Assembly (NCBI GenBank): GCA_028285415.1
Contig: JANQPF010000009.1
Coordinates: 620,001-684,000 of the forward strand
Source of the DNA: Pseudomonadales bacterium
GTDB taxonomy: Bacteria > Pseudomonadota > Gammaproteobacteria > Pseudomonadales > Azotimanducaceae
Reading direction: 5' to 3'
DNA length: 64,000 nucleotides
The stretch's first letter is position 1; the number at the start of each line of letters is the position of its first letter. The position numbers and the translations under genes are program-made. The notes below the pieces were generated by a model that was not told where the DNA came from, made no database searches, and worked only from the letters and a program-made list of their open reading frames with translations. Positions 19,529-27,606 of the stretch are shown one piece after another.

Positions 19529-20164
19529 ATGCCACGCATCAAATTCACCAAGCACCACGCTTCCGAGCGCCTGCATTTCTGGACCTGGCGTGATCTCAAT
19601 CGCAAGCTGCAATCCGCGCGGGGCGAGGACGAGGCCCAGGCGGAGCAGTTTTCCCAGCGTGCCAACGAAGTCCGGGAAGAAGTGCAGTTCCTGCTGGGTG
19701 CCGGCCTCTCGGATGGTGCCGAGCAGGCGCTCAACAGCCTGGCCGAGGGGGACATGAGCGACTTCTGCATCCTCGTCGATCTGGCTGAACCCGTCGACAT
19801 TCCGGGGGTGACGCCGTTGCCCGAGGAGACCCGCAAGCACCTGCACCAGTTCCTCGACCAGGAACCCTGGCACTCCCTGGCGATCGACAACGACATCACC
19901 GTTGCGCTTGCGCTCCTCGATGAGGTTGGCGCAACGGTGACCAACCGGCCGTGGTACGAATATGCCCCGCACCTGGTCTCCCTGGTCGCGCGGCTCATGG
20001 ACGAAGTCAACAAAGAGCAGCTCCTGCGCTTCGTCGGCGAATACAACGTGTTGGCCGAACGCGACAACCTGCACCTGCCGCAGGAACTGCCGCAGGTGTT
20101 CGAGTCTCTCGTGCACGGTGCGGCCAACCGCCTCGGTGTACAAATGCCTGCGATTCGGGAGTAG
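19529..20164 (+). CDS. Hypothetical protein, function not recognised
   Basis: 211 residues, soluble, acidic and mostly helical, without signal peptide or membrane segments. Notable stretches are KHHASERLHFWTWRDLNRKL at the N-terminus, a coiled-coil-like AQAEQFSQRANEVREEVQFLL, DITVALALLDEVGA and LVSLVARLMDEVNKEQLLRFVGEYN. I recognise no domain. It lies 67 bp upstream of the selenoprotein gene on the same strand and may share its transcript. A good gene by length and composition; role unknown. Confidence 0.6.
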   Translation: MPRIKFTKHHASERLHFWTWRDLNRKLQSARGEDEAQAEQFSQRANEVREEVQFLLGAGLSDGAEQALNSLAEGDMSDFCILVDLAEPVDIPGVTPLPEETRKHLHQFLDQEPWHSLAIDNDITVALALLDEVGATVTNRPWYEYAPHLVSLVARLMDEVNKEQLLRFVGEYNVLAERDNLHLPQELPQVFESLVHGAANRLGVQMPAIRE

Positions 20165-20231: not shown

Positions 20232-21389
20232 ATGGCTGACATCGACATCAAGCGGATGGTGGCAGACCTGCCCTGTCCAGAGTTCGACGAGCCGGCGTTT
20301 GCACCGACAAAACCGCTCCACCAGGCGCGCGTTGCCGTGGTCACTTCCGCCGCGCTGCACCACCCGGAAGACAATCCCTTCGACGCCCAGGACACGAGCT
20401 TCCGCGTCCTCGATCCCAACCGGCGCGACGTGCAGCTCGGGCATTGGAGCCCGAACTTCGACCGTTCCGGCTTTGCCGAGGACATCAACGTCGTCTGGCC
20501 CATCGACCGCCTGACCGAGCTCGCCGAGCAGGGAGTCATCGGCAGCGTTGCCAACGTGCATCTGGCCTTCGCGGGCAATCAGGACGAAACCATGACCAGC
20601 ATCCGGCTGGATAGCGGACCGGCGGCGGCGCAGATACTCAAAGATGACGAAGTCGACGTTGTCCTGCTGACGCCCGTCTGACCGCTCTGCACGCGTACGG
20701 TCAGTACGATAGCCCACGTTCTCGAAGCCGCCGGTCTTGCCACACTCACCGTCGGCAGCGTTCCGGAACACATCCGCAAGGTCGCGCCGCCGCGCGGGCT
20801 CCTGTGCAACTTTCCCCTCGGGCGTCCACTCGGCAAACCCAACGACCCATCATTCCAACACGACGTGCTCAAGGCGCTCTTTGCCATGCTGGACGCGGCA
20901 GAGGGGCCGGTTCTCGAGACCTATCCCGAACACATCGACGCTGCCGACACCGAGCCGCTCGTCTGCAGCCTGCCGCCGCGCATGGATGACTCGCTCCACC
21001 CCGCGGTGGATGAGGCCCAGGCGCTGCGTAACGCCTACGATCGCGCGCTCGAAAAACGCGGCAACCGGATTGGCGCCGCGCGCGAAATCAGCGCCGACGA
21101 CGTGCCCGCAGCCGTTGCCGCCTTTGTCAGAATTACCGAAGGTGTGGACTGGAAGGAAGCGGAGATTCCCGGCAATCCGATGCGCGTGGCGCAGGATATC
21201 CGCGGCTACTATCAGACCGCTGCAACCGAGCTTGCCGAACACACACCGGCAGCATGGGCAGGCGAAGACTGGTTCTACGAGCAGACCGAAACCGGCCGGC
21301 TGATGCTGGCTGCGCGTACCGCGCTCAAAGCCGCCGGCGCGCCGCAGCCGCTCTGGTTCTACCTCAGTCCGGGAGATCGTCCCGCATGA
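20232..21389 (+). CDS. Selenoprotein, GrdB/PrdB-like reductase family (UGA as Sec)
   Basis: 385 residues if TGA at 20679-20681 is read as selenocysteine (Sec150). The frame stays open from ATG 20232 (GGGGAAG upstream) through the TGA to TGA 21387, and protein-like sequence continues without a break: DEVDVVLLTPV-U-PLC-TRTVSTIAHVLEAAG. U-x-x-C is a redox pair; the setting LLTPVUPLC followed by a TVxxIxxxLExAG helix resembles the Sec site of the glycine/sarcosine/betaine/D-proline reductase selenoprotein B family (B-type subunits). A SECIS-like hairpin follows the TGA. Substrate unknown. selA, selB, selC and selD are not in this window. The stop overlaps the next start as ATGA. Confidence 0.85.
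20679..20708 (+). promoter_or_regulatory. Candidate bacterial SECIS element
   Basis: Directly after the TGA, CGTAC (20694-20698) and GTACG (20704-20708) form a perfect 5-bp upper stem with apical loop GGTCA. The loop GGU occupies nucleotides 18-20 after the UGA; in E. coli fdhF the SelB-binding GGU is at 19-21. An internal loop and a GC pair extend below. An alternative TGACCG/CGGTCA pairing (20679-20684, 20698-20703) also exists. Confidence 0.7.
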
Positions 21390-21838
21390 AGTCAATTGCC
21401 ACTGTCATCGTCACGCTGGTTGTGCTGCTCTACGTTGCCGCCCGTGTGGTGCCGATCGAGCCGGACGAGCAGCGTCCGGGCACGGCGCTATCGGGCACGC
21501 TGGTAAGCGATCCGAACCCCGACTGGGGGTTCGTCCGCAGCCGGCAGCAGATCTTCGTGCAGACGAACACCTGGTACGGCATTCCGCATTCGGTAACAAC
21601 CATTGCGTTCGTTGCCGACGGCGAACTGTATGTGCCCTGCGGCTGGTGCGACACCAAACGCTGGCCGAAGAACGTGGTCGCGGACCCGCAGGTTGTGCTC
21701 AAAGTCGACGGCAGGCTGTTTCCGCGCACCGCGGTCCGCATCGAAGACGAGGCAACGCGAAATCGCGTGTTTGCGGTTTTGACCGAAGATGAAATTCCGT
21801 CGGATTGGGCACTTTATCGGATGGACGCGAGCGGCTGA
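21386..21838 (+). CDS. Membrane-anchored PNPOx/nitroreductase-like protein
   Basis: 150 residues. A hydrophobic N-terminus (SIATVIVTLVVLLYVAARVV) anchors or exports the protein. The rest looks like a split-barrel flavin-binding fold: TNTWYGIPHSVTTIAFVADGELYVPCGWCDTKRWPKNVVADPQVVLKVDGRLFPRTAVRI resembles the pyridoxamine-oxidase / deazaflavin-dependent nitroreductase type. It contains a CGWC pair that may be redox-active. It starts within the selenoprotein stop (ATGA), so translation is probably coupled and the two may work together. Family call is tentative. Confidence 0.55.
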   Translation: MKSIATVIVTLVVLLYVAARVVPIEPDEQRPGTALSGTLVSDPNPDWGFVRSRQQIFVQTNTWYGIPHSVTTIAFVADGELYVPCGWCDTKRWPKNVVADPQVVLKVDGRLFPRTAVRIEDEATRNRVFAVLTEDEIPSDWALYRMDASG

Positions 21839-24674: not shown

Positions 24675-26912
24675 TTAGACGGAAAAACCAAGCTCGGTCA
24701 GCGGCATTTTCCGTACTCGCTCACCGGTGGCAGCAAAGATGGCGTTACCAACAGCCGGGGCAAGTGGCGGCAACGCGGGCTCGCCTAGACCCGTCGGCGT
24801 GTAGTCACTCTGGATAAAGTGCACATCCACCGGTGGCGCTGCGGGCATCCGCAAAACCGGATATTGATGGAAATTGGTCTGCTGCACGCGCCCCTCCTCC
24901 ATCGTGATTTTCTGCCCAACCATCGTCGACAGTCCATCGATGATCGAGCCTTCAACCTGGGACAAGGCACCACTCATGTTGACAATCGGGCCAACGTCAA
25001 CCGCCGCGGTCACTCTATGCACGGTCAGCTTCTTGTTGGCATCAACGCTGACCTCAGCCACTTCCGCGACGTGGGCTGCGTGACAGAAATAGAAGGCAAG
25101 GCCTAAACCGCTTCCCACCGGCATCTCACGGCCCCATCCGGACTTCTCTGCCGCGAGGCGAATCACATCCGCGGCACGGCCGGTGTTCAACGACTGGACA
25201 TTGGCCGGCTCGAACCAGCGGGGCTCGCCGAGGATCTCGAGCAGAAATTCAACGTAGTCCCGGCCGGCAACGTGGGCCATCTCACTCAGGAAGCTCTGCA
25301 CGACAAACGCATTGGTATTCGAGCCAGGCGCCCGCCATGGACCGCACGGCGTATTGATACCGAACATGGTCCTGGACACGAACCCATCATCGAGGTTCTG
25401 CAGCGGAAACTGCTTGGGACCAAATGATGAGCCGGAAACCGGCCGCCCGCCGGTCTGCATTCCTACAAAGTGATTCTCGAAGGCAACGAGCTTTCCAGAT
25501 GGGTCCACCGCGCCCTTGATGGATTGAAAACCACCAACCCGGAAGAAGTCATGGCGCATGTCGTCTTCTCTGGACCAGGTTAGCTTCACCGGCGCATTCA
25601 CACGTTCCGATATTGTCACCGCCTCAAGAACATATTCCGAAAAGACACGGCGTCCGAAGCTGCCCCCCATCCGTGTCTGGTGCACGGTGATCCGCTCTTC
25701 AGCGACGTTGAATTCCCTGCTGAGCAGCGGAATGCTGCTGCCTGGAAACTGATGCGGCAGCCATAGCTCGATGCTGTCCTTGCTGCGTTCGCCACGACGA
25801 TAGTGTGCCGTGCAGTTCATCGGTTCCATGCACAAGTGGGCAACGAAGGGGTACTCATAGAACGCTGCAAGCGTCGTGTTCTTGTTATCGCGAAACACGT
25901 CATCCACATTGCCTTTGTCCAGCGTAACGTCCCGGCCACGCTGGCCGTAAAGGGACTCCGCGCGGGCCTTAATCTGAGCCCAGCTATCTTTTGACGCACG
26001 CCGCTCATCCCATTCGATCTGCAACCGCTTCCGGGCTTCAAAGACCGCCCAAGTGCTTGTGCCAACAACCGCTACGCCATCTAATAGTTGCCTGGGATCG
26101 TCATTGCCGCGAAGCACAAACGCATCAACGACGCCAGGCAGAGTCTTGATTTCCTCCACATTGGCCGAACGGATCCTGCCACCAATCGCCGGACACTTCT
26201 GATAGGCCGCATACAGCATATTCGGTAGGCGCGTATCAATACCGAAAAGTGCGGCACCCGTGGCGATCTCGAGATTGTCGACACCCGTCATGGACTTGCC
26301 GAGAATCGTGTACTCATCGCGGGATTTGAAGACGAGTCCGTCCGGATCCGGCACAGACTGCTTCGCCGCAAGACCAGCCAGCTGGCCAAAAGTCATGAAA
26401 CGACCCGAACCGTGCCGCACAGTACTATCTGCCGCCACCAGTTCGTCGCGAGGAAGTTCCATAACGGTCGCGCCAGCGTCGATCAGCATCTCCCGGGCCG
26501 AGGCACCAAGTTGCCGCATCCGGTTCCACTCCCGCGGAATTGTGGTGGAGCCACCAGCTCCCTGGCCACCAAAGCTCGCCGAATCAACTGGCGCTGTAAC
26601 GACGTTGACGTCTTCCCAGCGGGCACCAAGCTCTTCAGCGATGATCATCGGCAGGGCTGTCTTGATCCCTTGACCCATTTCCGGTCTCGGCGCGTAAATG
26701 GTGATTGTGCCGTCCGATGCAATGTGAACAAATGTGTTCAACTGACCGCCGCTACCGTCCGCGTCGGTTTCAGCAGCAGTTGTCAGACGCGTCCCCAGCA
26801 CCAGCCCTCCGCCGACAACTGCTGCCAGTTTGAAGAACCCGCGCCGGTTCATGCCAAGCTCGGCTACATCAGCCTGCAATGCGCGAAACGTCTCGTCATG
26901 GACGCGGCTCAT
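24675..26912 (-). CDS. Molybdopterin-binding dehydrogenase large subunit (IorB-like)
   Basis: 745 residues of the xanthine dehydrogenase/aldehyde oxidase family, closest in character to isoquinoline 1-oxidoreductase beta subunits (IorB). A Tat signal [14 protein letters not shown] (about 22-35) shows export of the folded protein. Molybdopterin-binding stretches are visible: [89 protein letters not shown], and the C-terminal [28 protein letters not shown]. The gene begins 4 bp inside the 3' end of the 2Fe-2S subunit (ATGA). It would pass electrons to a cytochrome or other periplasmic acceptor. Confidence 0.88.
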
Positions 26913-27427
26913 GTGCGCACCTCCCGCGCCGCATCATAGAAGAGCCCGGCAGACGCCTCGTCACCGGACATCTGCACCGCGGCGCTGTGTATCGCAGCGC
27001 GAATGCGGTTGTAAGTGCCGCACCGGCAGTAATTCCCCACCATGGCAGCGTCGATATCCGCGTCCGTCGGAGCAGGGTTGTCAGCAAGAAGCGCGGCAGC
27101 AGACATGATCTGACCGGATTGACAGTAGCCGCATTGGGCAACGTCCAGATCGATCCAAGCCCGCTGCACCGGATGCAGCCGAGTGCCGTTGCCAAGACCC
27201 TCTATGGTGGTAATGGCCTTTCCCGCCGCCCCTGCCACGGACAGCACGCAGGCGCGCGCGGCAACGCCGTCGAGATGCACGGTGCAAGCGCCACACTGAG
27301 CAATCCCACAGCCGAACTTGGTTCCGATCAGACCAAGCACATCGCGCAGTGCCCAGAGCACCGGCATCTCGCCGGGTACGTCGAGGCGATGCGTTTCTCC
27401 GTTCACTTCGAGTTCAAATTGCGCCAA
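26909..27427 (-). CDS. 2Fe-2S subunit of molybdopterin dehydrogenase (IorA-like)
   Basis: 172 residues. The plant-type 2Fe-2S domain has [23 protein letters not shown] (CxxxxCxxC...C, about 40-65), and the helical domain holds the second cluster, QCGYCQSG...[16 protein letters not shown]. These carry electrons from the molybdopterin centre. I chose the TTG at 27427: GGAG lies 6 nt upstream and the product starts [11 protein letters not shown] as in the family. It has no signal peptide; it probably crosses with the Tat partner. FAD is not part of this two-subunit design. Confidence 0.88.
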
Positions 27428-27606
27428 AGCCCACTCCTTATATATGGCCCAGTTGCATGAAAGGTTGCGATGAAAAGCTTCGACTTTAGCGCTCGGTCCC
27501 GACGGGTCAAGGGTTACAGCCTGATCGCACACAATTGCCCGACGAGTTTTTACAGCACCGCCGTTTCCGCCTATGATCGAGGTGAGCATCGCGGGAGAGG
27601 AATATC

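What the first reader, a model, noticed from the sequence alone, without database searches (positions are those of the whole stretch)
20232..21389. Probable selenoprotein with in-frame UGA and SECIS hairpin
One reading frame continues from 20232 across TGA (20679) to 21389, with protein-like sequence on both sides. The UGA sits in LLTPV-U-PLC, a UxxC redox pair. Just after it CGTAC-GGTCA-GTACG gives a hairpin whose GGU loop is 18-20 nt from the UGA, against 19-21 in E. coli fdhF. The GrdB/PrdB-like context fits. The next gene is translationally coupled (ATGA). A standard gene caller would break this gene in two.
Basis: partly seen in the sequence, partly recalled or inferred. Interest (0 to 1): 0.9.

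Follow-up and report, generated by a model that had tools for sequence, protein, structure and literature searches.

The report
PrdB-like selenoprotein with helical tail
A stop codon in the middle of this bacterial gene is almost certainly read as the selenium amino acid selenocysteine, giving a 385-residue redox protein related to a known selenium enzyme subunit but apparently without its usual partner and with an extra tail of unknown role.

Summary
The frame 20232-21389 crosses one TGA (20679). The own genome has tRNA-Sec, SelA, SelB and SelD above cut-offs. Of 85 loci examined, 78 have TGA at that codon, including five further paralogues in the same genome, and the other 7 have Cys. The hairpin after the TGA is kept by compensatory changes: 97.2% of cells paired and 97 two-sided changes, against 21 in shuffles. 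RNAalifold finds the same stem unprompted. The Cys forms have a weaker stem and none has the loop GU. By family it is PF07355 above cut-off but far below the PrdB equivalog cut-off (126.8 versus 300 bits). No PrdA/GrdE-type partner (PF09338) was found, without a positive control. PrdB selenoproteins have been known in marine metagenomes since 2005, so the kind is not new. Not found in print: a subgroup with about 160 extra C-terminal, predicted helical residues without a PDB match, no widely conserved neighbour, and six divergent Sec paralogues in one genome. The substrate is unknown.

The parts
20232..21389 (+). Selenoprotein gene (385 aa, Sec at residue 150), PrdB/GrdB-like
   Evidence: start matches three orthologues
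20679..20681 (+). In-frame UGA read as selenocysteine (U150)
   Evidence: TGA in 78 of 85 loci examined, TGC/TGT in the other 7
20688..20690 (+). Codon of Cys153, second residue of the UxxC pair
   Evidence: among 76 distinct TGA loci UxxC in 73, UxxD in 3
20694..20708 (+). SECIS hairpin, 5-bp stem, loop GGUCA at 20699-20703
   Evidence: Covariation; model R1 36 bits
20904..21386 (+). C-terminal extension (residues 225-385), predicted all-helical, no named family above cut-off
21386..21838 (+). Overlapping downstream gene (150 aa): N-terminal hydrophobic stretch and CGWC by eye, weak match to F420H2_quin_red (PF04075, 20.3 bits, cut-off 22)
   Evidence: same neighbour in L022, not adjacent in the other orthologue regions compared
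19529..20164 (+). Upstream gene (211 aa), no family above cut-off; shared with orthologue L022

Best explanation
The UGA at 20679 is decoded as selenocysteine by SelB and tRNA-Sec, steered by the hairpin at 20694-20708, giving a 385-residue PrdB/GrdB-like selenoprotein. This is shown by comparison, not by experiment, and the confidence given is for this part. Inferred, at about one in three: Sec150 is the nucleophile of a redox domain and Cys153 resolves it to a Se-S bond that a cellular thiol system re-reduces. Because no pyruvoyl-type partner subunit (PrdA/GrdE) was found, it would be a stand-alone reductase rather than a D-proline or glycine reductase, its substrate held by its own core and perhaps by the helical tail, and the six divergent paralogues would serve different substrates.
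For: Sec machinery: tRNA-Sec 73.6 bits over cut-off 47, with ARAGORN naming tRNA-SeC, anticodon tca; selB 408.8 bits and selA 523.4 bits on the same contig beside it; selD 271 bits. At the aligned codon 78 of 85 loci have TGA and 7 have TGC/TGT. Five more relatives in the genome, each with one TGA. Covariation score 0.710 against 0.193 in shuffles, 0 of 500 reaching it; slid versions at most 0.202. Loop bases 2-3 are GU in 73 of 76 distinct TGA loci (72 of the 75 counted, plus the window) and UU in 3; GU in 0 of 7 Cys forms (read). Core stem: 5 pairs in 65 and 4 in 11 of 76 TGA loci; 4 in 2, 3 in 4 and 2 in 1 of 7 Cys forms. Amino-acid constraint on both sides of the UGA (pN/pS upstream 0.18-0.53, downstream 0.27-0.50 in 7 pairs). 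A relative in 131 of 150 genomes of the same family, own included.
Against: No biochemical evidence. Single-sequence folding does not favour the hairpin. Genome by genome, a relative and a selA match co-occur only moderately: both 119, relative alone 12, selA alone 13, neither 6 (from; Fisher p 0.013). Of the 12 without selA, one search lists a TGA match for 6 (G028, G048, G065, G091, G104, G143); for the other 6 the codon was not shown. Eight of the 12 are under 90% complete, four (G041, G065, G087, G104) are not. Only 125 of the 132 selA matches pass the cut-off. The PF09338 absence has no positive control. The function part rests on family resemblance alone.
Confidence: 0.93

Rival explanations
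1. The TGA is a true stop: the gene is a pseudogene, or two genes lie end to end.
For: The mechanical ORF list gives an ORF ending at 20681 and another from GTG 20865.
Against: TGA at the same codon in 78 of 85 loci while the protein on both sides stays conserved; the stretch 20682-20864 before the next listed start is conserved coding; Cys forms read straight through; Sec machinery present.
Confidence: 0.02
2. UGA is read as another amino acid, by general read-through or a changed code.
For: None beyond the open frame.
Against: TGA is also the terminal stop of this gene and of the next one; tRNA-Sec and SelB are present; the covarying hairpin and the Cys column point to Sec.
Confidence: 0.01
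3. It is a genuine D-proline or glycine-type reductase subunit that works with a partner not recognised here.
For: Best family match is PrdB (126.8 bits); the 2005 and 2008 metagenome surveys filed marine Sec proteins with UxxC as PrdB (passages read).
Against: Far below the PrdB equivalog cut-off of 300; PF09338 in 0 of 29 near genomes and 0 of 369 of the class, but with no genome known to have it as a control; no widely conserved neighbour in the 23 regions compared.
Confidence: 0.12
4. The overlapping downstream gene (hydrophobic N-terminus, CGWC) is the electron donor or partner.
For: ATGA overlap in the window and TAATG overlap in L022; homologues in 116 of 150 family genomes.
Against: Clustered only in the window and L022 among the 23 regions compared; in G112 and G132 homologues lie on the same contig as the selenoprotein gene but about 7-8 kb away.
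Confidence: 0.2

Closest known systems
D-proline reductase PrdB (TIGR04483)
   Same: Homologous core; Sec in a UxxC motif (PrdB motif as tabled in PMC2398784 and PMC13188914, passages read)
   Different: 126.8 bits against an equivalog cut-off of 300; about 160 extra C-terminal residues; PrdA-type partner not found (no positive control); no prd genes recognised around the gene
Selenoprotein B of glycine/sarcosine/betaine reductase (GrdB/GrdF/GrdH; PF07355, TIGR01918, NF040794, NF040795)
   Same: PF07355 above cut-off (39 bits, cut-off 22); residues 7-206 match the C-terminal half of these models
   Different: Nothing matches the first 200 positions or so of these models; 47.7 bits, below the TIGR01918 cut-off of 65.45; PF09338 not found
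'Proline reductase PrdB' selenoproteins of Sargasso Sea and GOS metagenomes (PMC1088965, PMC2398784)
   Same: Sec proteins with UxxC filed under PrdB: 42 and 235 sequences (passages read); they may include relatives of this group
   Different: The passages read give no tail, paralogue or partner analysis; the sequences themselves were not compared

Membership tests
Bacterial selenoprotein | In-frame UGA with coding conservation on both sides | tested here: met
Bacterial selenoprotein | SECIS hairpin just after the UGA, G/GU in loop, conserved across relatives | tested here: met
   single-sequence fold energy does not support it
Bacterial selenoprotein | selA, selB, selC, selD in the genome | tested here: met
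Bacterial selenoprotein | Cys at the Sec column in homologues without UGA | tested here: met
   7 of 7 loci without TGA, L075-L081
Bacterial selenoprotein | Se actually in the product | not testable with these tools
   Needs 75Se labelling or mass spectrometry
GRDB domain family (PF07355) | Score above gathering cut-off | tested here: met
   39 bits, cut-off 22
PrdB equivalog (TIGR04483) | Score above equivalog cut-off 300 | tested here: not met
   126.8 bits; the five own-genome paralogues 62.5-164.4 bits, scanned from the start of their matched part, L021 in its matched part only
PrdB equivalog (TIGR04483) | PrdA-type partner (PF09338, assignment recalled) in the genome | tested here: inconclusive
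   0 of 29 and 0 of 369 genomes, no positive control
Glycine/sarcosine/betaine reductase selenoprotein B (TIGR01918) | Full-length match above cut-off 65.45 | tested here: not met
   47.7 bits, only model positions 200-399 of 431

The most novel reading that the evidence does not exclude
An expanded lineage of partnerless, tail-bearing PrdB-fold selenoenzymes has replaced the pyruvoyl-dependent chemistry of Stickland reductases with a single-chain Sec reductase. It has diversified into six classes within one bacterial family (Pseudomonadales by the titles of two MAG relatives; perhaps aerobic, judged only from dioxygenase genes nearby), including a UxxD class that has lost the resolving Cys.
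Probability: 0.35. Interest if true: 0.65.

Novelty: new variant of a known kind. Interest (0 to 1): 0.45.

Why it matters
PrdB-type selenoproteins rank among the commoner selenoproteins of ocean metagenomes, yet they carry the name of an anaerobic clostridial enzyme whose partner was not found here. If these proteins are stand-alone reductases, a name used in marine surveys for two decades may mislead, and an unknown selenium-dependent chemistry becomes testable from one defined gene.

Tried and rejected
Other selenoproteins in the window: a codon-usage scan for frames crossing one TGA listed 11 cases. This gene was one; I judged the others by eye to be mostly antisense to long ORFs and ran no family search on them. 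The hairpin model found no second strong site in the window. The next full-length genome hit, C2:158655 (17.9 bits), has TGG at the codon and was rejected; two partial hits were not looked at.

Conserved operon: of 23 regions compared (18 with the gene or its orthologues, 5 around the paralogues), clusters shared by 15, 9 and 5 regions (numbers 2, 3, 5) proved to be antisense or out-of-frame readings of the gene itself. The widest cluster that looks like a real neighbour (number 4, P450-like by eye) is in 5 of 23 regions; others are in 3 or fewer. Only L022 shares the genes directly on both sides. The remaining small clusters were not followed.

Structure: the whole-protein model from four sequences is weak (mean pLDDT 63.6) and gives no PDB match at E 0.001 or better. 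The tail alone is better (77.4) but also has no match (best E 1.1). No sequence match in the PDB (to E 1, to E 10). The whole-model resemblance to photocobilins (E 0.006, TM 0.27) was not taken as evidence.

DUF416 for the tail: 12.5-14.6 bits, below cut-off 23.7; rejected. Synonymous differences are at or near saturation in most pairs, so the pN/pS values are rough.

Tail homology: of 83 tails, 40 match the window tail at E 1e-3 or better: all 31 of its own clade, 9 of the 28 of the sister long-tail clade, none of the 24 short-tail rows. A shared origin of the tail with the rest of the sister clade is therefore not shown. Some tails may be cut by contig ends.

Papers: passages read in PMC2398784, PMC13188914, PMC9312934, PMC1088965, PMC1794560 and PMC9402790; the others were seen in search listings only. 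'Not found in print' means the seven searches, in open-licence papers only.

Full report
OBSERVATION. The window frame 20232-21389 has 385 codons before its terminal TGA and one internal TGA at 20679, codon 150. The start is fixed by three orthologues at 70-73% identity that begin at the same residue and carry TGA at the same place: L022 and L024 (MAGs titled Pseudomonadales) and L023 (titled Proteobacteria). The hairpin stands at 20694-20708 with its loop GGUCA at 20699-20703, 18 nt and more after the UGA. The next gene overlaps by ATGA; L022 has TAATG at that junction.

SEC MACHINERY. The own genome (99% complete) has tRNA-Sec at C4:3571-3659 (73.6 bits over a cut-off of 47; ARAGORN: tRNA-SeC, tca), selB and selA directly beside it on the same strand, and selD on C21. 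By the sequence, the selB stop lies about 24 nt before the tRNA gene, so selC follows selB and is not nested in it.

THE SITE ACROSS RELATIVES. The genome holds five more relatives, each with one TGA. Of 150 genomes of the same family, own included, 131 have a relative at E 1e-10. The list of matches there is cut; in it every row that spans the site shows a TGA, and the two rows without one (G016:C81, G028:C44) begin after the site. I examined 85 fetched loci base by base: 78 have TGA at the aligned codon (76 after dropping two duplicates) and 7 have TGC or TGT. The 7 Cys forms are the 7 genomes, besides the own one, that a PF07355 search found among 398 of the phylum. That search sees only the part before the UGA, so it says little about how common Sec forms are elsewhere. 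Among the 76 the motif is UPxC in 73 and UPLD in 3.

THE HAIRPIN. On 76 sequences (71 distinct) the five-pair stem is formed in 97.2% of cells. Ninety-seven cells have changes on both sides (shuffles 21.4), with a covariation score of 0.710 against 0.193, reached by 0 of 500 shuffles. Sliding the partners by 1-3 columns gives at most 0.202. One measure does not separate from shuffles: the number of pairs with any two-sided change, 4 against 3.5 (251 of 500). RNAalifold predicts the same stem from the alignment, with one more pair. Loop bases 2-3 are GU in 73 of 76. The 7 Cys forms have 2-4 of 5 core pairs and none has GU there; 11 TGA loci also have only 4 pairs. A model of the element hits the six paralogues in the genome at 35.8-40.6 bits, the next at 19.2 (150 of 3495 first-look candidates scored). 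Against this, energy folding of the single sequence gives another structure, no better than shuffles.

LINK TO selA. In the same 150 genomes selA matches in 132, 125 of them over the cut-off. Relative and selA are both found in 119, a relative alone in 12, selA alone in 13 and neither in 6 (Fisher p 0.013). The association is weaker than a strict rule would give. Of the 12 without selA, 8 are under 90% complete; one search lists a TGA match for 6 of the 12 and does not show the codon for the rest. Of the 13 with selA alone, 12 are at least 90% complete, so these genomes may use Sec in other proteins. I could not tell missing contigs from true absence.

FAMILY. PF07355 GRDB is met (39 bits, cut-off 22), matching up to residue 147; its 347-position model was matched to position 345 there, so it ends near the Sec site. 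TIGR04483 PrdB gives 126.8 bits against a cut-off of 300, and the stretch after the UGA matches it alone with 23.3 bits. It is therefore a homologue outside the PrdB equivalog. PF09338, the family I take from memory to hold PrdA and GrdE, was not found in 29 near genomes or 369 of the class. No control genome rang, so the absence is not proven.

TREE AND TAIL. A tree of 83 core sequences splits into 59 mostly long-tailed rows (motif mostly UPxC-T/P-R) and 24 shorter ones (motif xPxC/D-HQ) that hold all 7 Cys forms. The six own-genome proteins fall in six different places, so the paralogues look old. Own paralogue L020 (Sec) sits inside the Cys group (96/82) on a long branch, which may mean a Sec/Cys switch or a misplacement. 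The window tail (residues 225-385) is 65-67% identical in the three orthologues, is predicted all-helical (pLDDT 77.4), and has no PDB match. Forty of 83 tails match it: 31 of 31 in its clade, 9 of 28 in the sister clade, 0 of 24 elsewhere.

CONTEXT. In 23 regions compared, the widest cluster that looks like a true neighbour is in 5 (P450-like by eye); apparent wider clusters are readings of the gene itself. L022 shares the upstream 211-residue gene and the downstream one. The downstream protein has an N-terminal hydrophobic stretch and CGWC by eye, and an F420H2-quinone-reductase-like match just below cut-off. It has homologues in 116 of 150 family genomes but is adjacent only in the window and L022 among the regions compared. 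Pfam tests gave a TauD-type dioxygenase next to paralogue L017 and a zinc-type dehydrogenase two genes downstream in the window; other neighbours were judged by eye only.

MECHANISM. Shown by comparison: Sec insertion at codon 150. Inferred: Sec150 attacks, Cys153 resolves, a thiol system recycles. In PrdB and GrdB the substrate is held on a pyruvoyl partner (recalled; a reference title seen names the pyruvoyl group of D-proline reductase). Without one, the substrate must be bound otherwise, and the tail is a candidate. I put about one in three on a stand-alone reductase family.

KNOWN OR NEW. PrdB selenoproteins were counted as 42 in the Sargasso Sea set and 235 in GOS (passages), and proline reductase as 6.4% of 4324 marine selenoprotein genes. 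[quoted passage not shown] So the kind is known. The tail, the six paralogues, the missing partner and the UxxD class were not found in seven paper searches, which cover open-licence papers only.

Noticed in passing
L019:1879-1890 (own genome C15); also L112, L115: Sec-type paralogues with UPLD in place of UPxC: the resolving Cys is Asp while the hairpin is kept.
   Followed up: partly
L020 (own genome C30:121366-122031): A Sec paralogue placed inside the Cys-form clade (support 96/82, long branch): possible Sec/Cys interconversion or misplacement.
   Followed up: partly
window 21386-21838: Small protein with N-terminal hydrophobic stretch and CGWC, weakly like F420H2-dependent quinone reductases; homologues in 116 of 150 family genomes.
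   Followed up: partly
L013 (own genome C21:106114-107010): SelD match lies in an open frame of 729 residues, so it may be a fusion.
   Followed up: no
L001:1498-1617: tRNA-Sec gene lies about 24 nt after the selB stop on the same strand.
   Followed up: no
L049, L051, L052: Three Sec-type loci have loop CUUGU in place of xGUxx, an unusual SECIS loop.
   Followed up: no
window 24675-27589, - strand: Two ORFs (745 and 226 aa) that look by eye like a two-subunit molybdenum hydroxylase; no family search was run.
   Followed up: no
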